Source: an uncultured Lactobacillus sp.
Lineage (GTDB): Bacteria; Bacillota; Bacilli; Lactobacillales; Lactobacillaceae
Assembly: GCF_945290125.1 (NCBI RefSeq)
Contig: NZ_CALYQV010000004.1
Span: forward strand, 1 to 62,132
Length of the DNA: 62,132 bases
Reading direction: 5' to 3'
Below, piece after piece: positions 1 to 16,450 of the stretch. Every line of letters starts with the position of its first letter. Position 1 is the stretch's first letter. Both the position numbers and the translations under genes were made by a program. Below the pieces are notes generated by a model. The model was not told where the DNA came from, searched no databases, and was given only the letters and a program-made list of their open reading frames with translations.

Positions 1-60
1 TAATGGATCGCACGTAAGATTCCGGTTCTTAAAATCTGAGTTCGACTCTCAGGGGACCCA
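1..60 (+). tRNA. tRNA-Arg (anticodon CCG), 3' part only
   Basis: The window opens inside a tRNA gene. An anticodon stem TAAGA/TCTTA encloses the loop TTCCGGT, giving anticodon CCG (arginine, codon CGG). It is followed by a T arm CTGAG-TTCGACT-CTCAG (36-52), the 3' acceptor strand GGGACCC (53-59) and discriminator A60. CCA is not encoded. The 5' acceptor strand and most of the D arm lie outside the window. Confidence 0.9.
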
Positions 61-134
61 TTGAATTTAGGATAAAATGTGTTATTTAATGTTTCTATTT
101 ATTTTCATTCTTACTTTAAAGATGCTTACAGTTA

Positions 135-180
135 AAAAGCTGATAAACTTCATTATAAGACCAGAAGTTTATCAGCTTTT
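135..180. terminator. bidirectional rho-independent terminator
   Basis: Perfect 17-bp inverted repeat (135-151 and 164-180) with a 12-nt loop. A/T runs on both sides let it end transcription of the tRNA (plus) and of the GH28/PTS operon (minus). Confidence 0.85.
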
Positions 181-225
181 CACTTTCCTATTAATTTAGT
201 AATATTTAATTAAAGACAAAATTTT

Positions 226-1390
226 TTATATCTGAAAATTCAAAGTGACTTCATTAAAACAAATTTTTTGGCCATACTTATCAATTTGAAAAGTGTCTAA
301 GTTTAAGCAGTTTTCAAACTTAATATGAACATTATCACTAATTTTGAATCCCTTTAAATCCCTTAGTAAGCAATTATAAAAACTAATATTTATTTTTTTC
401 CGCCAATGATATGGGACAGCTGTTTCATGTTTTCAATTTGACAATTTTCAAAAACCAATTCTTTTAGTTGCCTATTATTTTCTAGTTCTTTTTCCGAAGC
501 AGGGTAATATCTAACTAGACTTCTACATTTTTGAATAGACATATCATGAAAAACAATTTTTGAACTATCTAATTCAAGAGGATCAGTAGTTAAAGAATAA
601 AATATAAAGAAATCATGTGTAAAATAAGTTTTTAAATGTCTATAAGGATATTCCCCTGGTCCAATTACAGCACAATTATTTATCTGAAAATTAGTTCCAC
701 CACAACGAAAAGTATTACAACTGGTATTAAGCCAGCAATTACTAATTTTAAATCTTGGATTTCATACCCCGCAATACAATCATCACCAGTGTTAAGCAAA
801 CAGTGTTCAATTTTAATATTTCTCGAATAATGTAAATTAAAACCATCATGACCAGCATTAATCTTTACATGTTGAATATTTACATTATTACAACCAATAA
901 TAGCATGTGACCAATTTGCGCTATTAATAACTTCATATCCTTCCAGCTTTAAGTTTTTAACATTAGAAAATGTTAATCCCATTTGTCCACGAAAATGTTC
1001 TTCACCATTAGGATCAAAAATATTATTGCCATCTATAAGTGAATCCTTTTCGCCGCAAATCGTTATATTTTCTGCGTTATAAGCACAAAAAATTGCTTTA
1101 AAATAATGTTCGGGAAGGTTCCAAAGCCGAATCATATGCTTATCATTTACATACTGAATTTTAGTTTTTTCATTGAAATCCGTAAAGTCAGAAATAGAAT
1201 TATAAGCTAGTATTCGACAGCCTGCCTTTAAACTTAACTTTGTATTACTATAAATTCTTAAAGATCCAGTTTTATATATGCCAGGATTAAAAATTAGTTC
1301 AATATTACTACCATTTTTAGCTTTATCTAAAATTTTTTGTATACTTACAGTCATATTCTGGCCATTAGAATTTATTTCGTATTTACTCAT
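226..1390 (-). pseudogene. GH28 glycoside hydrolase (polygalacturonase-like), two frameshifts
   Basis: Glycoside hydrolase family 28, the right-handed beta-helix enzymes that hydrolyse galacturonan or rhamnogalacturonan. The first frame, from an ATG at 1390, shows beta-helix repeats and the catalytic stretch NTGDDC. After the T run 746-749 the family sequence continues in another frame (NTFRCGG near 700), and after the T run 393-399 in a third frame, ending at 226. Losing one base in each run explains both jumps. Restoring both gives exactly 389 codons, a normal GH28 size. There is no signal peptide, so an intact enzyme would act in the cytoplasm on imported oligosaccharides. It is last in the PTS operon and its ATG overlaps the EIIA stop by 8 nt. 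The broken protein would end soon after its DD motif and is unlikely to work. Sequencing error in A/T runs is the alternative. Confidence 0.85.
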
Positions 1391-1808
1391 CGTCGTCATT
1401 ATCATTCACCTTAAAATCATTTACGTAAATTATTGCTTTCTTAGCTTCTTCAATATGTTTTTTTATATCCGAATCAGTTAAATATCCCTTTTTAGGGTCT
1501 AATACAAAGCTCATTATTAGCGGTAAATTCATACCCGTAATTAAATGAATATGTAAACTCATATAAGGCATAAATGCCTGATTAACACTTCCCGCCAAAA
1601 TGTCAGTAAAAACAAATATTTCATCTTGATTGTGAACATTCGACATTAATTTTTGTACATCTTTTTCAATTGATACATTGTTTATATAACCATTTAGGTA
1701 TTTTATAGAACAACCACTATTAATAATATATTTTAATGTGTCGGTCATTCCTTCAGCTAAACGATGATGAGAAGCAATTATTATCGTTCTTTGCATAGTA
1801 TTTCTCAT
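1383..1808 (-). CDS. PTS mannose-family EIIA
   Basis: Cytoplasmic EIIA of the mannose/fructose/sorbose PTS family (141 aa), which passes phosphate from HPr to EIIB. The phospho-acceptor is most likely His14 in IIIASHHRLAEGM, and the family's DILAGS segment follows near residues 68-73. The usual start would be Met1 at 1808 or Met5 at 1796. There is no strong ribosome site, but the true EIID stop (1812) is only a few bases upstream, which suggests translational coupling. The stop overlaps the GH28 start. The reading frame is intact although the genes on both sides (GH28, EIID) are broken. Confidence 0.85.
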   Translation of the reverse strand: MRNTMQRTIIIASHHRLAEGMTDTLKYIINSGCSIKYLNGYINNVSIEKDVQKLMSNVHNQDEIFVFTDILAGSVNQAFMPYMSLHIHLITGMNLPLIMSFVLDPKKGYLTDSDIKKHIEEAKKAIIYVNDFKVNDNDDDE

Positions 1809-1811
1809 TTT

Positions 1812-2611
1812 TCAGGCTTTAAAAACACCAAAGTATGTGCCTATAAGAGCCAGTAGGATCACCAAAAAAATCACTCTGGTCGCTGTCCACTTCTTATTAT
1901 TCAAAAGTTTATAAACGATAAAGGTCAACAATGCTGGTAGTAATGCAGGCATTATTTATCCAAAACACCAGTTTGTAAAGCCAAGTTAACCTTACCCATT
2001 TGAAAAGTAAGAGAAGTTGAAACTTTTACAACCGTAGCTACTAAAGAGCAAATAACGGTTAATCCCATAATTGATGCAGCTTCAGTAAAGATATTTAATT
2101 TAGTGCCTAAATTATCTATTAATTTTGTTCCAGATGTGTAGCCTACATCATAAAACCAGTATTTTAAAATATAAAGTAAAATATTGACGGTAAGCCACAC
2201 AATTGCACCTAATGGATTGCCTTGCAAAGCCATGTAGCCAGAAAGAGACCCCATAATTGTTGGCCATAAAACCCAGAATATAGTATCTCCGATTCCTGCA
2301 TGAGGACCCATCATACTTGTCTTAAATGACTGAATGGTTTCGGCAGCTTTTAGACCATCCTTTTCTTCCATTGCTACAACCGCACCTAATAGAAGATTTC
2401 CCATGATTGGAGTCGTATTAAAATATCTAAAATGGTTAGTTAAAGCTTTTTCATATTCATCATCATTAGGATATATTTTTCTAAGCAAGGGGGCTAAAGA
2501 AATTGCTACACCTAGTCCCTCTTGTGTTTCGTAATTAAACATATTTACGCAAAACCAGTTCCATCGCCAACATGCTCTTCTCAAATCATTTTTCGTTACT
2601 TTATACTTCAT
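1812..2611 (-). pseudogene. PTS mannose-family EIID, 3'-frameshifted
   Basis: Membrane subunit EIID. From the ATG at 2611 the frame gives 219 residues with a typical EIID start (TKNDLRRACWRWNW) and a Gly/Pro-rich core (MMGPHAGIGDTIFWV), then stops at 1952. The missing C-terminus is present one frame over: from IMPALLPALLTF it runs through a last membrane helix to a stop at 1812 (46 codons from an ATG at 1952). One lost A in GATAAATAATG (around 1954-1958) accounts for it. Repair gives 267 codons, the usual family size. The truncated protein lacks the final transmembrane helix that follows the LLP motif in EIID proteins. No clear ribosome site precedes 2611. I read this as a real lesion or a homopolymer error. 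Confidence 0.82.
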
Positions 2612-2635
2612 ATTTGATGGATTTAAATCAATTTT

Positions 2636-3421
2636 TTATTCATCATAATCGTCTCCTTCCTCACCGTTGGTAGCTACATTTTTATTCTTAATATCATTTT
2701 TACTCTCTTTTACATAGTAAATATAGCCAAATGCTAGTCCCATAATAGCTATTCCTAAGACAGGTACTTTCATATATGCAGCAATAACAAAACCTATCAT
2801 AACGTACGGTAAAAACTTTTTAATAGGCATATAATGCAGTAGCATTGCAATACCACCAACTGGTAACATGCCACCTGCCACTGTTAAACCATCAGTTACC
2901 CATTTTGGAATAACCTTAAGAATCAAATCGACAATGGTGGGGCCAGAAAATACAATTAATGCAGTTGGTAAAGCTGTTTGCAAAAAAAACAAGGTTGGAC
3001 CTAAATAAGATAGTTTTCTCATCTTATTCCATTTGTGTTCCGCGTTAAGTCTCTCAATATAATGAATTAAGAAATTATTAATAATTCTACATACGACTTC
3101 CAGTTGAATACCTAATAAACCTACTGGAATACCTACTGCAATGGCAGATTTAATTCCCGTACCAGTTCTGATGGCAATAAAAGCACCAATAATAGTGGCA
3201 AGTCCATAATTAGGAGCTGAAGCACCACCAAGAGCTGCTACTCCCAACATCATTAGTTGAAATGTACCGGCTATCACTAAGGCAGTTTGTAAATCTCCCA
3301 TTATAAATCCTGTTATCATACCAACAATCACTGGAAACCAAGACATAATTACTGGCCCATCTTCATCTACAGTCATATATCCTGCTAAAATAATAATTAG
3401 AATATCTTGTACTAATTGCAT
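2636..3421 (-). CDS. PTS mannose-family EIIC
   Basis: Integral membrane EIIC (261 aa), which with EIID forms the sugar channel of mannose-family PTS systems. It has many hydrophobic helices and the family segments GDLQTALVIAGTFQLMMLG (about residues 42-60) and GGASAPNYGLATIIGAF (65-81). The C-terminus is an acidic, Asn-rich tail (from about 240). The frame is intact. It lies 13 nt after EIIB and 24 nt before EIID. The substrate cannot be read from sequence; linkage to GH28 suggests a galacturonide or similar uronic or pectic oligosaccharide. Confidence 0.88.
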   Translation of the reverse strand: MQLVQDILIIILAGYMTVDEDGPVIMSWFPVIVGMITGFIMGDLQTALVIAGTFQLMMLGVAALGGASAPNYGLATIIGAFIAIRTGTGIKSAIAVGIPVGLLGIQLEVVCRIINNFLIHYIERLNAEHKWNKMRKLSYLGPTLFFLQTALPTALIVFSGPTIVDLILKVIPKWVTDGLTVAGGMLPVGGIAMLLHYMPIKKFLPYVMIGFVIAAYMKVPVLGIAIMGLAFGYIYYVKESKNDIKNKNVATNGEEGDDYDE

Positions 3422-3434
3422 TTCAATTTACTTC

Positions 3435-3902
3435 CTAAGCTATATATTCTTTTTCTGGGTCAGTAGGAACATATTGAATTACTACTGGAATTCCCATATT
3501 CTTTAACGTCATTAAATCCTGCTTTTCTTTTGCATTAAGAAAAACAAATTTTGAAATTGGTTTTCTCCCATTTTCATCAAAGAGTATGCCTAAATCAATT
3601 TTGGGAATTTTAATGCCAGCTTTCACAAGTTGAATTAAAACTTCGGGTTCTTTTACCAATATAAAAACTCGTTGTTCATCATACTTGCCAATACCAAAAT
3701 TATGTATGGCTTTTTTAGTATTAATAATAGACATTCCTGTCCCAGCTGGTTTTGTCATTCTCATGTTGGATTTAATAGATTCATTTTTGCTTAACTCATC
3801 ATCAACAACCATGAAGCGCTTTATTTTTAAATATTGTGCCCACTGATTAACAATTAATCCATGAATTAATCGTTGATCAATTCTTGCTAAAACAACAGTC
3901 AT
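3435..3902 (-). CDS. PTS mannose-family EIIB
   Basis: Cytoplasmic EIIB (155 aa) that phosphorylates the incoming sugar. The N-terminal motif ARIDQRLIHG carries the phospho-His (His14). The family usually has HGQ after it; here it is HGL. The start ATG at 3902 has a strong ribosome site (AGGAGG, complement of 3911-3916), so this is the first gene of the operon EIIB-EIIC-EIID-EIIA-GH28, divergent from the AraC-type regulator. Confidence 0.9.
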   Translation of the reverse strand: MTVVLARIDQRLIHGLIVNQWAQYLKIKRFMVVDDELSKNESIKSNMRMTKPAGTGMSIINTKKAIHNFGIGKYDEQRVFILVKEPEVLIQLVKAGIKIPKIDLGILFDENGRKPISKFVFLNAKEKQDLMTLKNMGIPVVIQYVPTDPEKEYIA

Positions 3903-4016
3903 TCTACATACCTCCTATATTAAATGAATATTTTTATATTTAGGCATAGAAAGACACTTTCAAAAAAATAATTTTTTGAATTTTTAATTTATCTTTTCGC
4001 TATTTAATGCCCTTTA

Positions 4017-4032
4017 CACTATTATATTAGTG
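4017..4032. promoter_or_regulatory. inverted repeat over a minus-strand -10 box, possible operator
   Basis: CACTA-N6-TAGTG lies in the divergent EIIB/AraC intergenic region and contains TATAAT on the minus strand. A binding site for the AraC-type protein over the PTS promoter would fit. No good -35 box is visible, so this is tentative. Confidence 0.3.
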
Positions 4033-4100
4033 CCTAAGTATCTTTTTTTTAACCACTTAATTAGTAGAAAAAGTGTTAAAATCTTTCATAGGAGAACATT

Positions 4101-5069
4101 ATGAATTACTTAATTAATATTAATAAGCCTATTTTAAATATTTGGACTAAAGAATTTATTAAAGAAGAAGGATCTGTATGGGTTCATCCAAGTCAACAAC
4201 ACTCCCAAGATTTTGAACTCACAATTCTTAAGAAGGGTAATTTAAATTTAAGTTTAAATGGAAAACCTTTAATATTAAATTAAGGTGAAGCATTACTTAT
4301 ACCGCCGTTTGCACACTTAATGGGAATTAAATCAACCTATGCAGCAATTTCTCTATATTGGACACATTTTTTTGCAGAATATAAAAATCTAAAAGATAAT
4401 GATTCTTTATCAAGACAAATTATATCTGGCAAAAAGCAATACATTTTAGATAATTATGCAGTTATCCCAGATCATTTTATTCTCCATAATCCAACTCAAA
4501 TTTATCTCCTTTTTAATCAACTCGTTAACATCACTGCAAAGAAGAGAAAAATAAATAGAGGAAATGATTTATTTTTGTCTTATTTATTAACTGCTATTAG
4601 CAATGATTATTTAGAAAATATTAGTAAAACTGAAGAAAAAAAGAACATTAATATTATCTCTGAGTGGATTAAAGTTAATATTTCACCACATTTAACTGTT
4701 AAAAAAGTTGCTCAAAAATTTGGTCTTAATTCCAATTACTTAAGTCGAGCTTTTAAAAAGGAAACAAATATACCTTTAAAATCATACATTATTAATATGA
4801 AACTTGACTTTGCTAAATACTTATTAAGAACAACTTATCTTTCTGTTTCCGAGATAAGCTACAAATCATATTTTTCCGATACAAAGTTATTCTTTCATAC
4901 TTTTAAAAAAAGAGTAGGTATAACTCCATCTCAATATAGAAAGCTTACTAATTCAACTAAATATAACAGTAATTTTGTAGATCAAAAGATGCCTTTGCCA
5001 TCTGAATTCGGGACAATAGCCATTCGCAAACTAATTAATGAAATTGTTGAAGAAAATAAAAATGCATGA
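4101..5069 (+). pseudogene. AraC-family regulator with internal TAA
   Basis: AraC/XylS-type transcription factor with an N-terminal cupin-like sensor half and a C-terminal double helix-turn-helix (about residues 220-310, including VAQKFGLNSNYLSRAFKKE and SYFSDTKLFFHTFKKRVG). The start at 4101 has AGGAGA 6 nt upstream. The frame is open for 60 codons, meets TAA at 4281-4283, and then continues in the same frame with typical family sequence (GEALLIPPFAHL) to 5069. Without that stop the protein would be 322 aa, normal for the family. The usual residue at this spot is not known, but CAA (Gln) to TAA is a single C-to-T change. It is divergent from the PTS/GH28 operon and so probably its activator. 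A restart at ATG 4320 would lack most of the sensor. Confidence 0.85.
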
Positions 5070-5110
5070 ATGTTTATAATTCGAACTAAAATAAAAAGTT
5101 ATTGAATTTA

Positions 5111-5147
5111 AAAAACCATTCTAACAATTCTTGTTAGAATGGTTTTT
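5111..5147. terminator. bidirectional terminator
   Basis: Perfect 17-bp stem with a 3-nt loop (5111-5127 / 5131-5147) and T runs in both directions. It separates the AraC pseudogene (plus) from the carbamoyltransferase (minus). Confidence 0.9.
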
Positions 5148-5176
5148 GTATATTTTTTCCAATAAAATTAAGGTTT

Positions 5177-6196
5177 TTATAAAAGAAAATAAGATAAATC
5201 TCTTTGAAACTCATTATCAATCTGGTTCGAAAAATCTTCTTTAGCTAATTTATCTTTAAGCAGATAAGTAAATATTGCTCTCATTGCCGTCTTTTTGTTT
5301 GCAGCTTGTTGCCAGACAATTGAGTTTTCACCCTCAAGCACAGAAGCTGTCACTTCTTCACCTCTGCTTGCAGGTAAACAATGCATAAATTTAACGGTAG
5401 GGTTGTGTGTTTTAGCCAGCATTTTTTCGTTAACCTGGTACTTAGGATAAAATATTTTCATATACTCTGTTTGATCAAGCTCTTGATCATATAGGCCGTA
5501 CCAAACATCCGTATAAATAAAATCAGCATTTTCTAAGACTTTTTCATCTTCAGATAGAGTAATTGAACCACCATTTTGCTGAGCTATTTTTTCTGCTTTT
5601 CGCAATATTTTTGGAGATAATTGCTTTTCTTTAGGACCATATTGGACAAATTGCATTCCCATTTGAGCACACAAAAATAATGCTGAAACAGTAATTTGGG
5701 TTGCATCCCCTACAAAAACCAACTTCACATCGGAAATTTTCTTACCCTCAGGTAAAAATTCTTTAATCGTAATTAAATCTCCCAGTGCCTGAGTAGGATG
5801 ATCATTATCACTCATAAAATTAACAACAGGAGCCGGCGAATTTTGCGCAATCGTAACAATATCGTCATGACTAGCGGTTCTCACACCAATAATATCGACC
5901 AAGTCGCCTAAAGCATGACTAGTATCTACTAAGCCCTCGTGACCATTCTCTCCTAGTTGTATCTGCCCTGGAGCTAAATACAAAGCATGTCCTCCTAATT
6001 CAGTCATTGCAGTTTCGGCAGAGCAGCGTGTTCTTGTAGATACCTGATCAAAAATCATTCCTAAACTCTTACCTCTTAATAGCGGCGGGTAATAACCATG
6101 ATTAATAGCTTTTTTAATTTTTATACCTAAATCAGCTAAAAATTTCATTTCGTCTCTTGAAAAGCCACAAGTATCAATAAAGTCTCTTTTAACCAA
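5177..6196 (-). CDS. ptcA: putrescine carbamoyltransferase-type protein
   Basis: Aspartate/ornithine carbamoyltransferase superfamily, 339 aa, cytoplasmic. Carbamoyl-phosphate motifs are STRTR (about 53-57), HPTQALGD (133-140) and HCLPASRG (about 273-280). The ornithine enzymes carry an SMG loop after DVW; here the sequence is DVWYGLY, as in putrescine carbamoyltransferase of agmatine deiminase pathways, and the N-terminal part (GYYPPLLRGKSLGMIF, APGQIQLG) also matches that subfamily. It catalyses N-carbamoylputrescine + phosphate to putrescine + carbamoyl phosphate. The start is a TTG at 6196 with AGGAGG 6 nt upstream. No agmatine deiminase, antiporter or carbamate kinase lies next to it, so the physiological substrate is open. 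Confidence 0.8.
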   Translation of the reverse strand: MVKRDFIDTCGFSRDEMKFLADLGIKIKKAINHGYYPPLLRGKSLGMIFDQVSTRTRCSAETAMTELGGHALYLAPGQIQLGENGHEGLVDTSHALGDLVDIIGVRTASHDDIVTIAQNSPAPVVNFMSDNDHPTQALGDLITIKEFLPEGKKISDVKLVFVGDATQITVSALFLCAQMGMQFVQYGPKEKQLSPKILRKAEKIAQQNGGSITLSEDEKVLENADFIYTDVWYGLYDQELDQTEYMKIFYPKYQVNEKMLAKTHNPTVKFMHCLPASRGEEVTASVLEGENSIVWQQAANKKTAMRAIFTYLLKDKLAKEDFSNQIDNEFQRDLSYFLL

Positions 6197-6336
6197 AAAA
6201 TCCTCCTTTTAGTATTCTCTATTTTTCTTGTCGCGTACCATAATACAGAAAGCAAATTTATTTGAAAAACAATTACATTCAAATATAGAAAGTCTTAAAT
6301 ATTTTAGGAATAAAAGTCTTACTAAAATAAAAATAG

Positions 6337-6356
6337 CCACTGAAAAATTTCAGTGA
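6337..6356 (-). terminator. terminator of the 6441 surface-protein gene
   Basis: 8-bp stem CACTGAAA/TTTCAGTG (6338-6355). On the minus strand it is followed by GGC and a T-rich tract (TATTTTTATTTT). Confidence 0.75.
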
Positions 6357-6440
6357 CTTATATAATTTATTTAATTGCCAATTCGAATTTTATCAGTTGT
6401 CAAAAACTCTTATGATTAACAAACTGCTTAAAATAATTTT

Positions 6441-7967
6441 TTAATTTGTATTACCAGCTGTTAATTCTCCACGCTGGGCAAATTCAACGTAAAGCTTGTT
6501 ACCAGATGAGGACAAGCCTTCAATTTCACGCCTTACATGAAGATGATGGGTACTCTTATATGTTCCATCTTCATCAACTTTAAAGATATAGTCATTAAAA
6601 CCGATATAAAATTGGTTATGATTTTGATCGTAGGTAAACCCTTGAACTGGTGAACCATTGCTTACAAAGTTACCTTTAGTAGCTCCTACCTCAACGGGAG
6701 TCCAGGAATCACCGTTGCGAGTTACTTTCCAATATTCATAATAGCCGTTTCCGCCATTATGGAATAGACAATACATTGTATTGTCACCAGCAAACGTAGC
6801 ATTATGAATATATCTAGGACTACCATAGTTAGAAATCCTAAAGGTCCAGATTTGATTAATCTTCATGTCTGATTTACGTATTTGCAAAATTTCCTCAGAA
6901 GCATTTGAATTGCTAGAAGTATTGTTATTAGCAATAACGTAAATGTATGCAGAAGATGATCCTATTGCTTGACCATGGCCTAATTTAATATAAGGACTAA
7001 CTTTAATATGAGAGGCATATTTCTTAAATGTTGACCATCTCAATGTTTGTAAATTTTGCGCCTTGAATTTATTAATATGTTTTAAATTATAAGAAACTAA
7101 ATGACCGTTTTGTGCACTACTTGAATTAAATAGAGCAACCGTAAAGTTTGAACCATTCACGGTTATGCCCTCGGGAATTACGCCTACTTGTCCCATCTTA
7201 TCACCAGATTGATTGTAGCCCAGACTGACAAAACGAGGCTGGAACAGCTTGGTTTTTAAAGTTAACCCATTAGCTTTAAACGTGTTAGATCTTGTTTCGG
7301 AAGTATAATGATGCGCTGCGTTCCAGTTTCTGGAAGAAGACTTGGAACTACCTTTCCAAGTTGAGACTTCCTTTGGTCCGTTCATAGGTTTTTTATCAGC
7401 TCTTGCTATACCTTCGTTCTTATCTGAACGAACAGTCACATCGACTGTAGCTTTAGCCTTACCATAACTATAATCAACAGTGGTCTTACCAGGGGTGCCA
7501 GAATTAATCTTTGACTTAGAAACTGTTACCTTGCTTGTGCCTACAGCTGTACCAGCACTATTAGTCACATAATTGATAGCATCCTTAGTATTAAACGAAT
7601 ATTGATTATTTTGTACTAAGCTTACTTTCTTCGCTACAGAAATCTTATTTCTGGCAAAAAAGTTCTGATTAACCCAGCCGACCGTGCGCCCGTCAACAAT
7701 TATCTTCCAAAACTTGCCTTTCCTAGTGGCCATTGACTGTTTAGACTGAATTTGTGCGTGCTTGAAATATTTAGTCGATGTAAACTTGCCAGATGGCCCC
7801 ATTTTTGAAGCATAATGATAAACTGCATAATTACCATTACCTGCTATCTTGGTTACTGCCTTATGATAGCTTTTAGCAGATATATATGAACTGTTACTCC
7901 CAACAAATAAGCCAACTGCAGCTATTGTTCCAGCAATCAGCAACTTATTTTTAAATTTTCTTTTCAT
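6441..7967 (-). CDS. secreted surface protein with SH3/GW-like, Ig-like and propeller-like regions
   Basis: 508 aa. The N-terminus is a signal peptide (MKRKFKNK, then a hydrophobic core, cleavage near 32). Residues about 35-115 form an SH3/GW-like wall-binding unit (WKIIVDGRTVGWV). Residues about 118-185 resemble a bacterial Ig-like domain. The remaining 300 residues consist of short beta-rich repeats (GHGQAIGSSSAYIYV, PVQGFTYD, REIEGLSSSGNKLYV), which by eye resemble a beta-propeller and, distantly, the helveticin J family. No LPXTG or transmembrane anchor is seen, so attachment would be non-covalent. It is a paralogue of the protein at 10331-12040 with the same domain order. Ribosome site AAGGGG lies 11-12 nt before ATG 7967. 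Function unknown: adhesin or bacteriocin-like protein are both possible. Confidence 0.75.
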   Translation of the reverse strand: MKRKFKNKLLIAGTIAAVGLFVGSNSSYISAKSYHKAVTKIAGNGNYAVYHYASKMGPSGKFTSTKYFKHAQIQSKQSMATRKGKFWKIIVDGRTVGWVNQNFFARNKISVAKKVSLVQNNQYSFNTKDAINYVTNSAGTAVGTSKVTVSKSKINSGTPGKTTVDYSYGKAKATVDVTVRSDKNEGIARADKKPMNGPKEVSTWKGSSKSSSRNWNAAHHYTSETRSNTFKANGLTLKTKLFQPRFVSLGYNQSGDKMGQVGVIPEGITVNGSNFTVALFNSSSAQNGHLVSYNLKHINKFKAQNLQTLRWSTFKKYASHIKVSPYIKLGHGQAIGSSSAYIYVIANNNTSSNSNASEEILQIRKSDMKINQIWTFRISNYGSPRYIHNATFAGDNTMYCLFHNGGNGYYEYWKVTRNGDSWTPVEVGATKGNFVSNGSPVQGFTYDQNHNQFYIGFNDYIFKVDEDGTYKSTHHLHVRREIEGLSSSGNKLYVEFAQRGELTAGNTN

Positions 7968-8134
7968 TAAACTTACAACCCCTTCTTCTATTATATAATA
8001 ATAGTTTTACACTTTTTTAATTCATATATCAATGATTATTATTGTTATTAATTTCAAGTGACTTATTATTAGATTTTTAAAAACATTTAAGTTAAAATAA
8101 AAAAATTGTTATTTTTATATAAGGGAGCAGTTTC

Positions 8135-9571
8135 ATGGGTGAAACACCAAACAATTTTAAAAAGATGATGTGGACAACGCTGGCCACTATGGCTTTCTCT
8201 ATTGTGTGGAGCTTTGGCAACGTTGTTAACGGATTCATATATTTTGATGGCACCAAGGTAATTTTCAGCTGGGTTATTATTTTCCTGCTTTTCTTTATTC
8301 CTTATGCCTTAATGGTCGGTGAACTTGGATCAGTTTTTAAAGACTCTGAGGGTGGCGTTGCTTCCTGGATTAACGCTACTATCGGACCCAAATGGGCCTA
8401 TTATGTTGGCTGGACTTTCTGGGCAGTACACGTGGTTTATATTTCCAGTAAGGGTACAACTGGCCTAAGAGGCATGGCCTGGGGCATTTTTGGTAATACT
8501 AAATGGTACGACAGTTTGCCTACAGCCTGGACGCAATTAGCCACACTGGTAGTATTTTTGTTCTTTTGCTGGGTAGCCAGCCGGGGGATTCCGGTAATTA
8601 AAACTCTATCAACAATTGCTGGCACTTCAATGTTTATTATGTCAATTCTATTTATTATCATGATGTTTGCGGCACCAATGATTAATCCGCATGCTAGTTT
8701 TAACAGCATAAACTGGAACTGGCAAAACTTTATGCCAGATTTTAATACGAAGTATTTTACTTCACTTTCAATTTTGGTATTTGCTATAGGTGGAGCTGAA
8801 AAGATTTCTCCATATGTTAGCAAATTAAAAAAGCCTGCAAAAAATTTCCCTAAAGCTATGCTAGGATTAGCTGGAATGGTAATGATTTCTGCTATCTTAG
8901 GTACTATTGCTTTAGCATTAATGTTTGATCCTAAAGTAGTTAATGGTAATTTGAATGAATACATTTCAAATGGTCCGTACATTGCTTTTCAAAAATTAGG
9001 TGAATATTACGGCGTTGGCGGATTATTCCTCTATATTTATGCCTGGTGCAACGTCATTGGACAATTTTCCGCACTGGTTATTAGTATTGATGCTCCTTTG
9101 AGAATGCTTCTAGGAGGCAAAGAAGCAAAAGATTTTATTCCGAAAAAGTTATTAAAAATCAACAAGCATGGAGCATACATTAACGGTATATGGATGATCG
9201 TCATTCTTTCCGGTGGTATTATTGCATTACAGGCTGTTATGCCTGATGCACAAACTGTGATGGCACAATTAGTTAAACTAAATTCGATAGTGATGCCAAT
9301 GCGTTATTTATGGGTTTTCATTGCCTACTTAGCTTTGCGTAAACAACATGAAAAATTCCATAACGATGCTGATAACTATCAAATGACTAAACACCAGTGG
9401 CTAGCCTATACTACCGGAATTTGGGGATTAGCCGTTACAATTGCCTGCTGTTTAATGGGAATGTATTCAAATGATCCATTTACGCTTTGTTTAAATATTG
9501 CCACTCCAGTGGTATTATTTCTACTTGGTTTAATTATGCCAACAATTAGACGAAAACAAGAGAAAAAATAA
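8135..9571 (+). CDS. APC-family amino acid permease
   Basis: 478 aa with about 12 transmembrane helices, in the amino acid-polyamine-organocation superfamily. The layout (GELGSVFKDSEGGVASWINA near 62-81, then long helices to the C-terminus) is that of the glutamate/GABA-antiporter-like branch, which also contains agmatine/putrescine antiporters. The substrate cannot be settled from sequence. GGGAGC lies 8 nt before the ATG and a strong terminator follows the stop, so it forms a single-gene unit. The carbamoyltransferase is 2 kb away on the other strand, so a polyamine link is possible but unproven. Confidence 0.8.
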   Translation: MGETPNNFKKMMWTTLATMAFSIVWSFGNVVNGFIYFDGTKVIFSWVIIFLLFFIPYALMVGELGSVFKDSEGGVASWINATIGPKWAYYVGWTFWAVHVVYISSKGTTGLRGMAWGIFGNTKWYDSLPTAWTQLATLVVFLFFCWVASRGIPVIKTLSTIAGTSMFIMSILFIIMMFAAPMINPHASFNSINWNWQNFMPDFNTKYFTSLSILVFAIGGAEKISPYVSKLKKPAKNFPKAMLGLAGMVMISAILGTIALALMFDPKVVNGNLNEYISNGPYIAFQKLGEYYGVGGLFLYIYAWCNVIGQFSALVISIDAPLRMLLGGKEAKDFIPKKLLKINKHGAYINGIWMIVILSGGIIALQAVMPDAQTVMAQLVKLNSIVMPMRYLWVFIAYLALRKQHEKFHNDADNYQMTKHQWLAYTTGIWGLAVTIACCLMGMYSNDPFTLCLNIATPVVLFLLGLIMPTIRRKQEKK

Positions 9572-9585
9572 GCAAAATAATACTT

Positions 9586-9612
9586 AACCGCCTAGCAATA
9601 GGCGGTTTTTTA
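9586..9612 (+). terminator. terminator of the permease gene
   Basis: 9-bp perfect stem AACCGCCTA/TAGGCGGTT with a GCAA tetraloop and a T run. Confidence 0.9.
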
Positions 9613-9655
9613 CATAAAAAATGCTATACTCTAATTAATTGAGGAGATGAGAATC

Positions 9656-10111
9656 ATGCCTAATTTTTCTGATGAAGCAGGAAGTCTGCTACGTAACCAT
9701 CACTTAAAAGTAACTAAACCACGCTTAAAAATACTTGAATATTTAATGGTACATCATAATCATCCCACCGCTTCAACGATTTTTACAGCAATCAGTGGAG
9801 ATAAGCCAGCTTATCGTGCCACCGTTTATAACAATCTTAACAAACTTGTAGACGCGGGTATCATAACTGAAATAAAAAATGGTGATGATTCTCTGCACTA
9901 TGACTACTTTGTAAAGCCACACTTTCATATTATTTGTAAAAAGTGCGGTAAAATTGCTGATGTTTATTATCCTGACTTTGGTAGAATTGAAGGGCAGATG
10001 AGAAATGAGGCAGATAAACAAACAGGTTTTGTCACTTCTTCAAGTCACGTTGAAATCTACGGCCTTTGTCCTGACTGTCAAAACAAAGAAAAAATGACTA
10101 AGAGATATTAA
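9656..10111 (+). CDS. Fur-family metalloregulator (Fur/PerR/Zur type)
   Basis: 151 aa. A winged-helix DNA-binding half (about 15-85, with YRATVYNNLNKLVDAGII) is followed by the metal and dimer half. HFHIICKKCGK and GLCPDCQ supply the two CxxC pairs of the structural zinc site, and the His-rich HFH segment belongs to the sensing site. I chose the second ATG (9656): GAGGAG ends 9 nt before it, whereas the first ATG (9647) directly abuts that ribosome site. TATACT at 9625-9630 may be the -10 box. Sequence alone does not tell peroxide, iron or zinc sensing apart. The gene sits between the permease and the second surface-protein gene. Confidence 0.88.
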   Translation: MPNFSDEAGSLLRNHHLKVTKPRLKILEYLMVHHNHPTASTIFTAISGDKPAYRATVYNNLNKLVDAGIITEIKNGDDSLHYDYFVKPHFHIICKKCGKIADVYYPDFGRIEGQMRNEADKQTGFVTSSSHVEIYGLCPDCQNKEKMTKRY

Positions 10112-10231
10112 TCATAAAACTGGAACAAGAATCAAGCTCTACTGAAAAATAATTCTCAATACTTGATTTATATTTGTCCTATTGATTTTGCTTCGATTCT
10201 TTAATGAATATCATGGTTACTGAAAGAAACG

Positions 10232-10267
10232 AGTCCTAAAAGTTAGATAACTTTCAGGACTATTTTT
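10232..10267 (+). terminator. terminator of the Fur-family gene
   Basis: 14-bp stem with one A-C mismatch (10232-10245 / 10248-10261), 2-nt apparent loop, then ATTTTT. Confidence 0.75.
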
Positions 10268-10290
10268 ATGACTAAATTATCTAAAGCATA

Positions 10291-10312
10291 AAAATAAGAG
10301 CCTTTCAGCTCT
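10291..10312 (-). terminator. terminator of the 10331 surface-protein gene
   Basis: Stem AGAGC/GCTCT (10297-10301 / 10308-10312). On the minus strand it is followed by TATTTTTAT. Short stem, moderate strength. Confidence 0.6.
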
Positions 10313-10330
10313 CATTTAAAAATATTTATT

Positions 10331-12040
10331 CTATTTAATATTCATGCTTACCAATAATTCAGCTCTTTGTGCAAGGTTTACATACAATTTATTATCACTA
10401 ACTGATAAACCTTCAATTTCACGACCGGTGTCAAAAGAATAAGTATCTTTTAATTTGCCATCGCGGCCAATCTTAAAGATTAAGTCATTGAATGCCAAGT
10501 AAAAGTTTTTATTCTTAGTGTCATACGTAAAACCTTGAACAGGTGAATTATTGTTTACAAAGTTGCCATCAGTTTTACCGACTAATTTTGGATACCAATT
10601 ATCTCCATTACGAGTGAATTCCCAATATTCATAACAATTATTGGCAGTATCATGGTAAACAGTGTACATATCCTTATCTGATACAATTACACCATTTTGG
10701 AAATAGCGATTACTCTTGCCATCATCAATCCAAGTTTTGATTGTCCAAATCTTGTTAATTTGTAAATCACTCTTACGGATTTGAAGTAATTCTTCAGAGT
10801 CATTAGTGTCATTTAATGTATTGTCATTATTTAACACATAAATATACTTATCACTTGCGCCCAATGCTTGACCATGACCAATTGGAATATATGGACTTAC
10901 CTTGATGTTTTTAACATAACTGTTAAACTTCTTCTGCGACATATCAAGTAAATGTTGCGCATCAAACGGGTCAGTTAAAGTATTCAGATCATAACCAACA
11001 ATATGACCAGATACCAAATTTGTGTGGCTTAAAAGACTAGTATATGCCCAGCCATTAGAAACGGTAACACCTTCTGGAATGTGACCAACACGGTTAATAT
11101 TATCATCTGATGGATCAGCTACACTTAGTAAAACTGGTTGATATAATCGTGTTTTTAAGGTCAAATCACCACTAGTCAAAGTATGTTTATTGGTTTCAGG
11201 CGTGTATTCTGTTGGACTAATATAATTTAATGATGAACCGTAATGGGTTTTCCAAGCCTGATAGTCATTGGTACCAGGTTGCGCCGGGAAGGAGGTAACG
11301 GTATTTGCATCAACCACTCCTTCTTTTTTACTTTTTCTAACAGTTATTTTAACTGTAGCAGTCGCATCTCCATAAGTATATTTAACTTTATATGTCTTAG
11401 GAGTTCCGCAATTAATGCTATCTTTTGAAACAGTTACTTGACTATTGTCAATCACCGTACCCATGCTGTTAGTAATATAAGAAATAGCATCTCTCGTAGG
11501 GAAGTTATAGAACTCATTGCGCACTAGAGATATAGTCTTAGGAACTGCAATTTGGTTTCTGGCAAAGTAACGTTCATTAACATACCCTACTTGTCTGCCA
11601 TTAACATAAATGCGCCAGTAGCGATACTTTTTAGTTTCAATCAACTGATCTGATTGAATATGACTATAACGAAAGTTAATACCGTCAGCTACTTTTGTGC
11701 TAACCTTCCCGTCATTTACTTCTTTCCAGACCTTATAATTTTTGTTGCCCGCAACTTTGGTCATCATAGAAAAACCAGTAACAATTTGTTTAGGCTTAGG
11801 CTTTTTAGTATTAGTGTCGTCTGTCCCAGTTTGATCAGATTTACCTGTTTGATCATTAGTGGCATTATTATCATTATTTACATCAGTTGAGTTGTTCGAT
11901 GACTTGTTGCTGTCATCTTGAACTGGCGGTTGAGCGCTATTCGAATCTGCCGCAACTGATGTAGTTGACAAGCCGGTACAAACTAGTAATCCGACAACCA
12001 ATGTCAGTAAATATGGTAATTTTTTCTTATAAAGCTTCAA
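10331..12040 (-). CDS. secreted surface protein, paralogue of 6441-7967
   Basis: 569 aa. Signal peptide to about residue 31 (cleavage after SVAA), then a low-complexity Ser/Asn/Asp/Thr/Gln linker (about 32-84) absent from its paralogue. An SH3/GW-like unit follows (YWRIYVNGRQVGYV, about 142-155), then an Ig-like domain (about 165-238) and a C-terminal repeat region of about 310 residues (IGHGQALGASDKYIYV, PVQGFTYDTKNKNFYLAF, REIEGLSVSDNKLYV). No sortase signal. The start is TTG at 12040 with GGAGGA 6 nt upstream; no ATG lies nearby. The C-terminal half is alignable by eye along its length with the paralogue. The linker suggests the propeller-like part is held away from the wall. Function unknown. 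Confidence 0.75.
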   Translation of the reverse strand: MKLYKKKLPYLLTLVVGLLVCTGLSTTSVAADSNSAQPPVQDDSNKSSNNSTDVNNDNNATNDQTGKSDQTGTDDTNTKKPKPKQIVTGFSMMTKVAGNKNYKVWKEVNDGKVSTKVADGINFRYSHIQSDQLIETKKYRYWRIYVNGRQVGYVNERYFARNQIAVPKTISLVRNEFYNFPTRDAISYITNSMGTVIDNSQVTVSKDSINCGTPKTYKVKYTYGDATATVKITVRKSKKEGVVDANTVTSFPAQPGTNDYQAWKTHYGSSLNYISPTEYTPETNKHTLTSGDLTLKTRLYQPVLLSVADPSDDNINRVGHIPEGVTVSNGWAYTSLLSHTNLVSGHIVGYDLNTLTDPFDAQHLLDMSQKKFNSYVKNIKVSPYIPIGHGQALGASDKYIYVLNNDNTLNDTNDSEELLQIRKSDLQINKIWTIKTWIDDGKSNRYFQNGVIVSDKDMYTVYHDTANNCYEYWEFTRNGDNWYPKLVGKTDGNFVNNNSPVQGFTYDTKNKNFYLAFNDLIFKIGRDGKLKDTYSFDTGREIEGLSVSDNKLYVNLAQRAELLVSMNIK

Positions 12041-12123
12041 AATATATCCTCCAATATTTAGTTTACCTTTAAATTATATAATAAAACCCTCTCTAAAAAG
12101 AATACAAAATTAATACACTTTCA

Positions 12124-12152
12124 TTGACAGCATGTAATGTAAGTGATTTAAT
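12124..12152 (+). promoter_or_regulatory. sigma-A promoter of clpP
   Basis: TTGACA (12124-12129), 17-bp spacer, TTTAAT (12147-12152): a near-consensus promoter that ends at the first bases of the CIRCE element. Confidence 0.85.
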
Positions 12153-12178
12153 TAGCACTGTACTTGATAGAGTGCTAA
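12152..12178 (+). promoter_or_regulatory. CIRCE operator (HrcA site) of clpP
   Basis: TTAGCACTG-N9-GAGTGCTAA, the 27-bp CIRCE inverted repeat with a single departure from consensus (final C of the left arm is G). It covers the transcription start, so HrcA bound here would block clpP at normal temperature. No CtsR-type heptamer repeat was seen in this leader. Confidence 0.9.
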
Positions 12179-12199
12179 TTATATTTAGGAGGTAGAAAG

Positions 12200-12784
12200 A
12201 TGCTTGTACCTACAGTTATTGAACAAACTGCACGTGGCGAACGCGCATATGATATATATTCACGTTTATTGAAAGACAGAATCATCATGCTTAGCGGCGA
12301 AATTAACGATGATATGGCCAATTCAATTATTGCACAATTACTATTTCTTGATGCTCAAGACAACACCAAGGATATTTCACTTTACATTAATTCACCGGGT
12401 GGTGTAATTACTTCTGGTTTGGCAATCATGGATACCATGAACTTTATTAAATCGGATGTTTCAACTATTGCCATCGGCATGGCAGCCTCTATGGCTTCCA
12501 TTTTACTGACTAGCGGAGCAAAAGGTAAACGTTTTGCATTACCTAACTCCACTGTTTTAATTCATCAACCTTTAGGTGGTGCACAGGGTCAGCAAACAGA
12601 CATTCAAATTGCTGCTAATGAGATTTTAAAGAGTCGTGAAAAAATTAACCGGATCTTACATGAAACTACTGGTCAACCTTTAGAAAAAATTCAAAAGGAC
12701 ACTGAGCGGGACAACTACATGACCGCACAACAAGCAAAAGACTATGGCTTAATCGATGAGATTATGGTTAACCAAAAGAAATAA
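12200..12784 (+). CDS. clpP: ATP-dependent Clp protease proteolytic subunit
   Basis: 194 aa serine protease that forms the 14-mer degradation chamber used with Clp ATPases for protein quality control. The catalytic triad is visible: Ser97 in GMAASMAS, His122 in LIHQPLGG and Asp171 in DTERDNYM. Length is normal for the family. AGGAGG lies 7 nt before the ATG. It is transcribed alone, from a promoter with a CIRCE element to a strong terminator. In related lactobacilli as I recall them, clpP adjoins whiA directly; here a 4.5-kb sugar locus lies between. Confidence 0.97.
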
Positions 12785-12799
12785 ATTTATTGCTAAGTG

Positions 12800-12836
12800 A
12801 AAAAGGAAGTTAAACAATTTGTTTAACTTCCTTTTT
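12800..12836. terminator. bidirectional terminator
   Basis: 16-bp perfect stem (12800-12815 / 12821-12836) with A and T runs. It serves clpP (plus) and the aldolase operon (minus). Confidence 0.9.
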
Positions 12837-12870
12837 TATTTGAATAGATATCTATATTTCGTGATTCGCT

Positions 12871-13614
12871 TTAATTTACCATACCATCCGTGCTTTTACC
12901 TCGAGACTGATACTGATCAATAATTCCTAATTTCTTAAAAATTGCTTGTTTATAAGCTATCTCAGCATTCCATTCCACTGTTTCCAAAACTTGAGCTGCT
13001 GCATGCAAATCTGTTTCAGTAATTAAAACTCCATGACTATTTAGCAGAAAAATATTTTCTTTAGCGCCAGTACCAAGTTTCACTAGCTCATCATGGACTA
13101 AATCAGCGAGTTCTTTACTACATGCTTCACGATATGGTAAACACTTAATTTTTCCAAGAGGTACATTAAAAGATGTAATTTCTGTTAAGTTAGGCATGTC
13201 CTGGCCTAATGTAGCCCAAAACATACATTTTGGTGCATGAGAGTGATAAACTACTCTAATGTCTTTATTTGCCTCATATGCTCCAATATGCATATTGATT
13301 TCTCGTGTTAGCCGACCCTCTCCCGCTAGTTTTTTACCTGTTTCTAAATCAATAACTAAGATTTGAGAAGCATTTAGCTTTGAGAACCATGCTTCAGACA
13401 TAAAAGTAGGAGTCATCAACAAATAATCATGGTTAGCATAATATGTCTGATTGTCATAAGAGAATGTTTCATCTGGTGTAATTTTGACAGAGATGTTTCC
13501 TCCAGCAATATTTGTTAATTTGCGATTGAACATTTCACGAGCGACTTCAGCTATATCTTTACGTTCATTTTCGAAAGGAAGCCTTTCTTTAATTATATTA
13601 TAGTTTTCAATCAT
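12871..13614 (-). CDS. class II aldolase/adducin-family protein
   Basis: 247 aa, cytoplasmic, zinc-dependent class II aldolase / sugar-phosphate epimerase family (L-fuculose-phosphate aldolase, rhamnulose-phosphate aldolase, ribulose-phosphate 4-epimerase). The zinc ligands are His124 and His126 in HSHAP and His194 in SHGVL, and Glu105 in TREINMH fits the catalytic Glu. The phosphate-binding NIAGGNISVK is near 35-44. It is the last gene of the PTS operon and overlaps the preceding small gene by 8 nt, so it probably cleaves or epimerises the sugar phosphate made by that PTS. The exact substrate cannot be given. Confidence 0.85.
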   Translation of the reverse strand: MIENYNIIKERLPFENERKDIAEVAREMFNRKLTNIAGGNISVKITPDETFSYDNQTYYANHDYLLMTPTFMSEAWFSKLNASQILVIDLETGKKLAGEGRLTREINMHIGAYEANKDIRVVYHSHAPKCMFWATLGQDMPNLTEITSFNVPLGKIKCLPYREACSKELADLVHDELVKLGTGAKENIFLLNSHGVLITETDLHAAAQVLETVEWNAEIAYKQAIFKKLGIIDQYQSRGKSTDGMVN

Positions 13615-13876
13615 CTAATTTGTCTCTTTTCCTTAATTTATATTGTTCACGTTTTTTATACGCAGCTCGATATCTAATTTCTTGTTGACGGTTATATTTT
13701 TCAAAAATTATTGGATCTCCATATTTAGCTATAAAAAGTCCAAATAGAATTACACTTATACAACCGAAAATATTTTGAGTAAAAATTGCTTCAATTGTTA
13801 AGATGACATTTATGAATAAAGCAAATGACCACCATATTTTTTGTGATAATTTTGAATTTGAAGATTTATCTTTCAT
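13607..13876 (-). CDS. small membrane protein, unknown
   Basis: 89 aa with two hydrophobic segments (about 14-31 and 34-50) and a highly charged Arg/Lys-rich C-terminus (60-89). GGAGAAG lies 5 nt before the ATG. It sits between the PTS EIIC remnant and the aldolase and overlaps the latter by 8 nt, which supports it as a real, co-transcribed gene. I recognise no family. Confidence 0.6.
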   Translation of the reverse strand: MKDKSSNSKLSQKIWWSFALFINVILTIEAIFTQNIFGCISVILFGLFIAKYGDPIIFEKYNRQQEIRYRAAYKKREQYKLRKRDKLDD

Positions 13877-13890
13877 TTAACTTCTCCGCT

Positions 13891-15435
13891 TTACCTGGTA
13901 AAGTTTGAAAAATCCACATCATTAATATCATTAATTGAGAATTTATCCTTAGTAGATGCACTTATAATATGTTTATGAACATTTTCGAAATTCATACCAT
14001 CAATGCTGGAAACAGACCACGTATCATTTCCTTTAGTAATATCTGTGGCTTCTGAAACATTTTCTACATTATCAACTGTACCCGTATTTAAGGCATAACG
14101 TTTACTAGGTAAAGCAATTTTATTTTGATCTTTGTAAAGCCAAATAAAAATCAATAACCATACCAAAGCAGCTGCAATTGCCCACCATTTACCATTAAAT
14201 GCCTGTGCAAAGAATAATCTAAAATCTGGTCCTTCAAAAGTTGACCAAGATAATTATTGACCAGGATTAACGTGTACTGCTCCTGTAGATTTTGCGAGAT
14301 TTGTGATTACTGGAGCAAAATAAGTAGCTCCGTATAAGAAAATTGGCGTAGTAATAATGCCTAATGTCAACATTCTCCATAAATTAGCTCCAGTTAGTAA
14401 TAGGGCTGCAACTACAAACGAAAGATTGATTATTCCAGCAAATGGTAAGACAGTGTTGCCCGGTAATACCATAGCCATGATTAGCATTACTGGTACTAAA
14501 ATAATTACTGTTACCCATAACTCATTTCTTCCTGCAAGAATGGGCCAGTCTAATCCAATAAATACTTGCCGACCTTTGAAGTGTTTTTTCATCATCTCAT
14601 TCATAGCATTAGCAATCGGGTTTAAAGCTTCCATAAATAATTTGGAAATCATGGGAAACATTGTCATAGCTGCTGCAGCTTCGATAGCAAGTTTTAAGGA
14701 TCCTGAAAGTGAATAGCCGGCCCCAAATCCTAATAGCACACCAATAATTGCACCCATTACAGAATTATCAGCAAAAATACCAATTTTCTTCTGGATAGCA
14801 TTAGCATCAGCTGGTTTATTCATTATTGGAATAAAATCTAGCAGTTTATTAAGTGGCATAAGTACAACTGCAAATAAGGTTACGAAATGAGGAACAGTAA
14901 CTCCCGGAATTCCAGTCAGGTCTTGAATGTGCCTTTGCCACATGTCCCCTGCTTTTAGTTCTAAGACGATCTGAATGCCTGCAACAATAAACCCATAAAT
15001 GGCGTTATGTGTAAAGTATAAGACTACTACATAAGTGAAAATCTTGTTCCAAACATTCCACATATCTACGTTCAAAGTTTTTGTCCAATTGAAAGTTAAC
15101 ATTATGAAATTGATTAGTAACAAAAACGGGAAAAATAAAAATGCTGCTTTGTATGACCAGGTAATCGCAGCTACGCCAGGCCATCCTTGGTCGATAGCGT
15201 TAAGACTTAAATGCAACATCTTTGACATTGCTTTGGCAGCCGGTGAAATTGAATCAGTCATGTAATTAACAACCAAAGTCATTCCACTGAAGGCAACACC
15301 TAAAGTAAGGGAAGCTTTAACGGCCTTGCTCAATTTTAATCTGGCTATCAAAGAAATGACAAACATAATCAATGGTACAAAAACGGCTGCACCCAAGTTA
15401 AGGACATAGTTGACTATGTTTTTTAGTATTTCCAT
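13891..15435 (-). pseudogene. PTS galactitol-family EIIC split by an in-frame TAA
   Basis: Membrane EIIC of the galactitol/sgc PTS family. From ATG 15435, 393 residues match the family (ISPAAKAMSKMLHLSLNAIDQGWPG is cut here to its start ISPAAKAM; also NVDMWNVWN, IGVLLGFGAGY, GLDWPILAGRNELW), ending PGQ and TAA at 14256-14254. The very next codons in the same frame continue the expected C-terminus (LSWSTFEGPDFRLFF, then a last membrane helix WWAIAAALVWLLIFIWLY), and the frame stays open to 13891. E. coli GatC likewise has a final helix after this point. Beyond the helix there is an odd polar tail of about 75 residues. The short protein lacks the last helix. Nonsense mutation is the simplest reading. 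Confidence 0.8.
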
Positions 15436-15454
15436 TTAGAATCACTTCCTTTCT

Positions 15455-15772
15455 TTATGACCTGCTTTTTAATGTCATCATGGCATTAACTAGTTCTAAA
15501 TAAGTATTGTCACCTTTTGATCCTGTCAAAATATCAACACCATTAACTTCCGGAATACCTTCTTTTTTGCATATGTCATGAATTTCAGGTGTTGGCTTTG
15601 CTAGCCATACATAAATATCATAATTAGGTAATACACTAGGTAGTTGCTTAAAATCTGTTGCTTCAACATCAACTCCCTTTACCGAATGATCCTCTAAAAA
15701 TGACTTCACTGTCCCTACAACAGTTTCACTAGTAGCAATTCCACTTCCACATGCAACGACAATTTTTAACAT
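15455..15772 (-). CDS. PTS galactitol-family EIIB
   Basis: 105 aa, cytoplasmic. The phospho-Cys is Cys9 in VACGSGIATS, the typical P-loop of galactitol/lactose-type EIIB proteins. It takes phosphate from the EIIA encoded just upstream and gives it to the sugar at EIIC. The gene lies between EIIA (11-nt gap) and EIIC (19-nt gap) in one operon and its frame is intact. Confidence 0.9.
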   Translation of the reverse strand: MLKIVVACGSGIATSETVVGTVKSFLEDHSVKGVDVEATDFKQLPSVLPNYDIYVWLAKPTPEIHDICKKEGIPEVNGVDILTGSKGDNTYLELVNAMMTLKSRS

Positions 15773-15783
15773 GACAAACTCCT

Positions 15784-16251: not shown

Positions 16252-16264
16252 TGAATCCTCCTTT

Positions 16265-16291: not shown

Positions 16292-16308
16292 TTTATATTT
16301 ACAATAAG

Positions 16309-16337: not shown

Positions 16338-16364
16338 GAGTTTTTTTAAGTAAATATCATTATT

Positions 16365-16380: not shown

Positions 16381-16450
16381 AGTTTTTAGTTAACATAGAC
16401 AAAAATTTATATATAAGTATTTATGGCTTGTAAAAGCTATAATTATTTTT

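What the first reader, a model, noticed from the sequence alone, without database searches (positions are those of the whole stretch)
226..5069. A whole pectin-type PTS/GH28 locus is decaying while the core genome is intact
Four lesions fall in three genes of one functional unit: two 1-nt losses in the GH28 gene, one in EIID, and an in-frame TAA in the AraC-type regulator. EIIA, EIIB and EIIC stay open. Repair of each lesion restores exact frame, family motifs and family length. The nonsense codon cannot come from a homopolymer miscall, which argues for true loss of the pathway. Such clustering suggests the strain no longer feeds on this substrate.
Basis: partly seen in the sequence, partly recalled or inferred. 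Interest (0 to 1): 0.7.

Follow-up and report, generated by a model that had tools for sequence, protein, structure and literature searches.

The report
Decaying borrowed sugar-uptake genes beside tRNA
A bee-gut Lactobacillus carries a small sugar-import gene set, sitting where close relatives have nothing, and that set has begun to break down; this is an ordinary case of gene gain followed by loss.

Summary
The lesions are in the sequence at the stated places. Three of four are firmly supported by unbroken relatives: the first GH28 frame change, the EIID frame change and the AraC TAA. The second GH28 frame change has weak homology support. Uniform sequencing error is an unlikely cause: 184 orthologues (58,663 aa) sampled from this genome hold two frame changes, against three in about 4.6 kb here. 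The 5.1 kb lies between tRNA-Arg(CCG) and ptcA, which are 51-81 bp apart in nine of twelve related genomes looked at. By its relatives the host is a bee-gut Lactobacillus of the Firm-5 group. EIIC is closest (79%) to Bombilactobacillus mellis. A divergent AraC with GH28 and EIIBCDA stands unbroken in Sporolactobacillus shoreicorticis. Best reading: a horizontally acquired Man-type PTS cassette turning into pseudogenes, a gain-and-loss pattern already described for Firm-5 PTS genes (PMC4449606, passages). "Pectin" remains an inference; no UxaC was found. "Core intact" is not fully right: another PTS gene in the window has a premature TAA.

The parts
1..60 (+). 3' part of tRNA-Arg(CCG), cut by the contig start
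   Evidence: Window 1-67 is 100% identical in G111, G112, G101 and G102; ARAGORN calls tRNA-Arg(ccg) at that place in the relatives. Not called in the window itself, where the 5' end is missing.
68..5194 (.). Inserted segment, absent between tRNA-Arg and ptcA in the nearest genomes
   Evidence: Local alignment with the G112 empty site: homology ends at 67 and resumes at 5195. A 10-base direct repeat, ATTGAATTTA, lies at 60-69 and 5101-5110 (read).
135..180 (.). 17-nt perfect inverted repeat, possible terminator of the minus-strand operon
   Evidence: I8; not listed by the terminator scan
226..1405 (-). GH28 gene in pieces: open 680-1405 (241 aa), then a second frame to the stop by the 393-399 run, then a third frame
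   Evidence: PF00295 41 bits; pieces; second frame change weakly supported
1383..1808 (-). EIIA, Man family, open, 141 aa
   Evidence: PF03610 49.4 bits
1812..2611 (-). EIID, Man family, broken by a frame change: 219 aa, then a 47-residue tail in another frame; the stop overlaps an ATG (TAATG)
   Evidence: PF03613 239.6 bits; both pieces found apart; alignment A2; frames
2636..3421 (-). EIIC, Man family, open, 261 aa
   Evidence: PF03609 226 bits; 79% to Bombilactobacillus mellis
3435..3902 (-). EIIB, Man family, open, 155 aa
   Evidence: PF03830 148 bits
4101..5069 (+). AraC-type regulator with in-frame TAA at 4281-4283; a later start at 4320 leaves 249 aa with the DNA-binding domain
   Evidence: HTH_18 68 bits; both parts match one 331-aa protein of S. 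shoreicorticis; no match at E 1e-15 or better in the 74 other genus genomes
5111..5147 (+). Terminator-like hairpin
5177..6196 (-). ptcA, putrescine carbamoyltransferase, flanking gene; its last codons lie on the inserted side of the junction
   Evidence: TIGR04384 451 bits, below its cut-off of 500; junction

Best explanation
The 5.1 kb segment is a horizontally acquired sugar-uptake cassette: a divergent AraC-type activator, a four-part Man-family PTS (EIIB, EIIC, EIID, EIIA) and a GH28 hydrolase that by my reading has no signal peptide. It was inserted between tRNA-Arg(CCG) and ptcA in one lineage of bee-gut Lactobacillus (Firm-5). It has since become, probably recently, a pseudogene cluster by a nonsense change and single-base frame changes in A/T runs. 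When whole, it presumably imported and phosphorylated a uronide-type oligosaccharide that GH28 then cut in the cytoplasm. Now the hydrolase, EIID and the activator are each broken, so uptake through this operon is probably off. Shown: the insertion relative to nine genomes, the lesions, unbroken relatives, the EIIC affinity. Inferred: direction (gain here, not repeated loss), substrate, recency, loss of activity.
For: Lesions supported by homologues. Their density far exceeds the sampled background. Of twelve related genomes fetched at this site, nine have tRNA-Arg and ptcA 51-81 bp apart, one (G022) holds another cassette, and in two (G015, G033) no ptcA was seen in the fetched stretch. EIIC pairs with B. 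mellis at 95/90 support, apart from the other Firm-5 copies in the tree. The AraC is found in 1 of 75 genus genomes, this one. S. shoreicorticis has AraC-GH28-EIIBCDA unbroken. Recent decay: positions invariant in the other aligned sequences are changed at 0 of 53 in EIIB, 2 of 79 in EIIC, 2 of 70 in EIID and 0 of 22 in EIIA. GC is 25.9-34.5% in the first five 1-kb bins and 28.5-38.2% in the next fifteen, a modest and overlapping difference.
Against: No reads and no second strain of the species were available. The 5' part of the tRNA and the cggR region were not found in the assembly, so the left flank is not seen whole. No integrase ORF lies in the segment. All three frame changes are in A/T runs, as base-calling errors would be, and runs of seven or more are denser here (1.9 against 0.6 per kb). 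One of the four lesions is weakly supported. Two frame changes and two other broken PTS genes elsewhere show that this locus is not the only one affected. The locus genes themselves are too divergent to have been tested in the census.
Confidence: 0.8

Rival explanations
1. Sequencing or assembly error: the frame changes are homopolymer miscalls and most of the locus works.
For: All three frame changes sit in A/T runs, and runs of seven or more are three times denser here. The contig starts inside the tRNA next to the locus. The assembly has 117 contigs and is 94% complete.
Against: The rest of the window shows no frame change in 121 matched reference ORFs (references from three relatives, redundant). 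The genome sample shows two in 184 orthologues. A/T runs of four or more are only slightly denser here, 28.1 against 22.5 per kb. The AraC TAA is a substitution.
Confidence: 0.12
2. Ancestral locus lost by the sampled relatives rather than gained here.
For: Firm-5 genomes gain and lose many PTS operons (PMC4449606 passages).
Against: It would need loss to nearly the same 51-81 bp gap in nine genomes, or one early loss with this lineage the only one to escape. The AraC is in none of the 74 other genus genomes at E 1e-15. EIIC pairs with another genus.
Confidence: 0.08
3. Partly working locus: EIID made as two coupled peptides through the TAATG overlap, and a shortened AraC from the start at 4320 acting without its sensor part.
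For: The stop overlaps an ATG in frame with the EIID tail; both EIID parts keep high identity to relatives. The 249-aa AraC part keeps the whole DNA-binding domain.
Against: EIID is one open frame of 274-310 aa in all 19 relatives compared (a twentieth locus gave no EIID and was left out). The sequence before the 4320 start shows no evident ribosome site (my reading). GH28 stays broken.
Confidence: 0.07

Closest known systems
Man-family (4.A.6) PTS gene clusters in genomic islands of bee-gut Lactobacillus Firm-5 (PMC4449606, 2015; passages seen)
   Same: Man-type PTS genes with sugar-cleaving enzymes and regulators, strain-specific, in islands; the paper infers expansion, then loss, recombination and possibly transfer between Firm-4 and Firm-5.
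   Different: Here the site is exact (3' of tRNA-Arg, before ptcA) and the cassette is caught while decaying. The passages I saw do not mention GH28; pectin occurs once in the main text, in the background.
AraC-GH28-EIIB-EIIC-EIID-EIIA cluster of Sporolactobacillus shoreicorticis (L156)
   Same: Same gene set, divergent AraC; EIIC 70%, EIID 70%, EIIB 65%, EIIA 45%, GH28 44%, AraC 36% identity.
   Different: GH28 stands first in the operon there and last here; all genes are open there.
PTS cluster of Bombilactobacillus mellis Hon2 (L155)
   Same: Closest EIIC found (79%), with EIID 78% and EIIB 75%.
   Different: No GH28 or AraC match among ORFs of 90 aa or more in the fetched 16.8 kb; a GH31 gene stands between EIID and EIIA.
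Other cassette at the same site in G022 (L256)
   Same: Also a Man-type PTS operon between tRNA-Arg(CCG) and ptcA.
   Different: 8,452 bp between tRNA and ptcA, EIIC only 30% identical, with SelA-like and KDGP-aldolase genes, an IclR regulator and a Gat-type EIIC.

Membership tests
Man-family PTS (EIIA, EIIB, EIIC, EIID) | All four components match their families over the cut-off | tested here: met
   PF03610, PF03830, PF03609, PF03613 all above the Pfam gathering score; EIID in two pieces. NCBIfam matches are all below their cut-offs.
Man-family PTS (EIIA, EIIB, EIIC, EIID) | Complete EIID | tested here: not met
   EIID open frame ends near profile position 221 of 265
Glycoside hydrolase family 28 | Family profile match | tested here: met
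   PF00295 41 bits, cut-off 22.9; 44% to an unbroken GH28
Glycoside hydrolase family 28 | One open frame of family length (400-428 aa in 11 relatives) | tested here: not met
   241 aa open; pieces in three frames
Glycoside hydrolase family 28 | Activity on polygalacturonate or rhamnogalacturonan | not testable with these tools
   No assay; no UxaC found in this genome
Pseudogene cluster | Disrupting lesions in several genes of one unit, with unbroken homologues | tested here: met
Pseudogene cluster | Relaxed selection on the remaining open genes | tested here: inconclusive
   Unique changes exceed those of B. mellis against 18 of 18 outgroups for EIID, 15 of 18 for EIIB, 14 of 18 for EIIC, 13 of 17 for EIIA (not independent); few invariant positions are changed
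Genomic island at a tRNA gene | Empty site in relatives | tested here: met
   Nine of twelve genomes with 51-81 bp between tRNA-Arg and ptcA
Genomic island at a tRNA gene | Integrase and duplicated tRNA end at the far side | tested here: not met
   No integrase ORF of 60 aa or more in 1-5200; only a 10-base direct repeat (read), which may be chance

The most novel reading that the evidence does not exclude
The genes are not dead but recoded. Both GH28 frame changes fall on X-XXY-YYZ heptamers of the kind used for programmed -1 frameshifting (my reading of the contexts; the EIID site is not one), the EIID stop overlaps an ATG that opens the missing tail, and the AraC could start late. The operon would then be a low-output system tuned by frameshifting.
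Probability: 0.03. Interest if true: 0.55.

Novelty: new member of a known kind. Interest (0 to 1): 0.2.

Why it matters
It gives a snapshot of one turn of the gain-and-loss cycle that shapes sugar use in bee-gut lactobacilli. It also names one exact site, just 3' of tRNA-Arg(CCG), where two genomes hold different PTS cassettes and nine of those looked at hold none. It changes no general view.

Tried and rejected
Substrate from context: left unsettled. GH28 occurs in 6 of 75 genus genomes, this one included. In G010 and G104 it lies near UxaC, but this genome shows no UxaC, so a galacturonate route is not supported; the genome is only 94% complete. None of the 19 GH28 loci of the family outside this genome showed an EII match in the short flanks fetched, so the GH28-PTS link rests on S. 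shoreicorticis and this locus.

dN/dS for EIIB and EIIC: not done, because no close copy of the locus was found (nearest EIIC 79% amino-acid identity); a relative-rate comparison was used instead, and it is not decisive.

Plasmid origin: five plasmid records match, none over 80% of the query; the best is a Loigolactobacillus backii plasmid with 47% covered at 67.6% identity. No donor is shown.

Programmed frameshifting: in-frame X-XXY-YYZ heptamers occur 125 times in 17,462 codons of 50 core genes, and losses in A/T runs create them easily. S. shoreicorticis reads GH28 in one frame. Folding of 75 bases downstream gave -6.9 to -10.7 kcal/mol, with no shuffle control.

Naming the species: not possible. 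The scan may leave out the window's own record.

Papers: PMC4449606 and PMC8456714, passages only; all others, search listings only. I saw no report of this cassette in those listings, but they show titles and abstract openings of open-licence papers only.
Full report
What is there. The window is the whole of contig 4 of a 2.13 Mb, 117-contig assembly, 94% complete. The group name Firm-5 is from PMC4449606 and recall. The region 226-5069 holds GH28, EIIA, EIID, EIIC and EIIB on the minus strand and a divergent AraC-type gene on the plus strand.

The lesions. Three are firm. GH28 changes frame near 746-749: its pieces match profile positions 15-227 and 226-342 of 405. EIID changes frame near 1955-1957: its pieces match 1-221 and 218-265 of PF03613, and the tail is 72% identical to that of B. 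mellis. AraC has a TAA at 4281-4283 between two parts that match one S. shoreicorticis protein. The second GH28 frame change, at 393-399, is weak: the tail scores 3.2 bits and one of 200 shuffles beats it, though it lands in the right place.

Error or decay. In the window, 121 reference ORFs from G112, G111 and L. kullabergensis (redundant) were matched; nine were flagged, none for a frame change and one for what I judge a real internal stop, the Gat EIIC. In 682 kb of this genome, 768 L. kullabergensis ORFs of 100 aa or more (from about 0.9 of its 2.1 Mb) were sought; 184 passed the filters (best match at least 70% identical), covering 58,663 aa, and 14 were flagged. Two are frame changes, both in DUF285 proteins on contig 15, and two are internal stops in PTS genes: the Gat EIIC here and an EIID on contig 13. 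I judged the other ten by eye as start-site differences, small or doubtful ORFs, or partial matches. Three frame changes in about 4.6 kb are unlikely at that rate (Poisson P about 2e-5; about 1e-3 without the weak one), though the rate rests on two events and on conserved genes only. A/T runs of four or more are 28.1 per kb here and 22.5 in the rest; runs of seven or more are 1.9 and 0.6. The EIID family shows the same scale: in this genome 24 match rows make 23 genes, two of them broken; eight other genomes have 99 rows, two with stops, both in G102.

Where it sits. Window 1-67 is the 3' part of tRNA-Arg(CCG) plus seven bases, and homology to G112 resumes at 5195, inside the last codons of ptcA. 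Twelve related genomes were fetched at this site. In G112, G111, G017, G019, G101, G102, G039, G104 and G029 the tRNA and ptcA are 51-81 bp apart. In G022 the same gap is 8,452 bp and holds a different PTS cassette. In G015 and G033 the tRNA stands beside an S-layer-associated gene and ptcA was not seen in the fetched stretch. The other genus genomes were not examined there. So this is an insertion site. A 10-base direct repeat (60-69, 5101-5110) flanks most of the insert but lies inside the right junction, so I give it little weight. Sequence shared with the relatives at both edges speaks against a chimeric contig.

Where it came from. EIIC is 79% identical to Bombilactobacillus mellis Hon2 and pairs with it at 95/90. 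The copies of L. kullabergensis and L. laiwuensis are 66% identical. The nearest full gene set found is in Sporolactobacillus shoreicorticis, with GH28 at the other end of the operon. In the family, 17 of 397 genomes matched the first GH28 piece, the own genome included; besides the own match there are 13 places at 42-47% and six at 27-32% identity. A donor is not identified.

How it would work. By family knowledge, EIIA and EIIB pass phosphate to a sugar that EIIC and EIID carry in; a cytoplasmic GH28 would then cut the product, and AraC would switch the operon on. Uronide as substrate is inferred from GH28 only; UxaC was not found in this genome but is present in G112, G010 and G104, 3 of the 8 searched. 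With EIID cut short, GH28 broken and AraC split, the unit is probably inactive. The open EII genes keep nearly all invariant positions, so the decay is probably recent. EIID shows more unique changes than its B. mellis counterpart against 18 of 18 outgroups, EIIB 15 of 18, EIIC 14 of 18, EIIA 13 of 17; these are not independent. One locus of the twenty collected (L169) gave no components and was left out; another (L168) gave no EIIA.

Known or new. PMC4449606 (passages) describes Man-type PTS clusters of Firm-5 as island-borne, strain-specific, expanding and being lost, with possible transfer between Firm-4 and Firm-5. The present locus is one more case, with an exact site and visible decay. 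Interest is low.

Noticed in passing
window 13891-15435 (-): Gat-type PTS EIIC with an internal TAA at 14254-14256; the whole frame is 92% identical to L. kullabergensis. In the relative the Pfam domain ends before that point, so a shorter working protein is possible.
   Followed up: partly
window 12871-17352: A second sugar PTS operon with a regulator is absent in G111, where clpP is followed directly by the gene matching window 17389-18324, but its EIIC and neighbours are present in L. kullabergensis.
   Followed up: partly
L256 (G022:C2) 1903-10354: A different PTS cassette (Man PTS, SelA-like, KDGP aldolase, IclR, EIIC-Gat) lies in the same tRNA-Arg to ptcA gap: a possible insertion hotspot.
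   Followed up: partly
L095 (G000:C13) 3640-4467 (-): Another Man-type EIID gene has an internal TGA at 4207-4209 in this genome.
   Followed up: no
L097 (G000:C15) 10985-16575 (-): Two neighbouring DUF285 proteins carry frame changes relative to L. kullabergensis.
   Followed up: no
window 1: The contig begins inside tRNA-Arg, and the adjoining region of relatives (the gene I take for cggR) was not found anywhere in the held assembly.
   Followed up: partly
window 5177-5194: The insertion junction falls within the last codons of ptcA, so its C-terminal residues differ from those of relatives.
   Followed up: no
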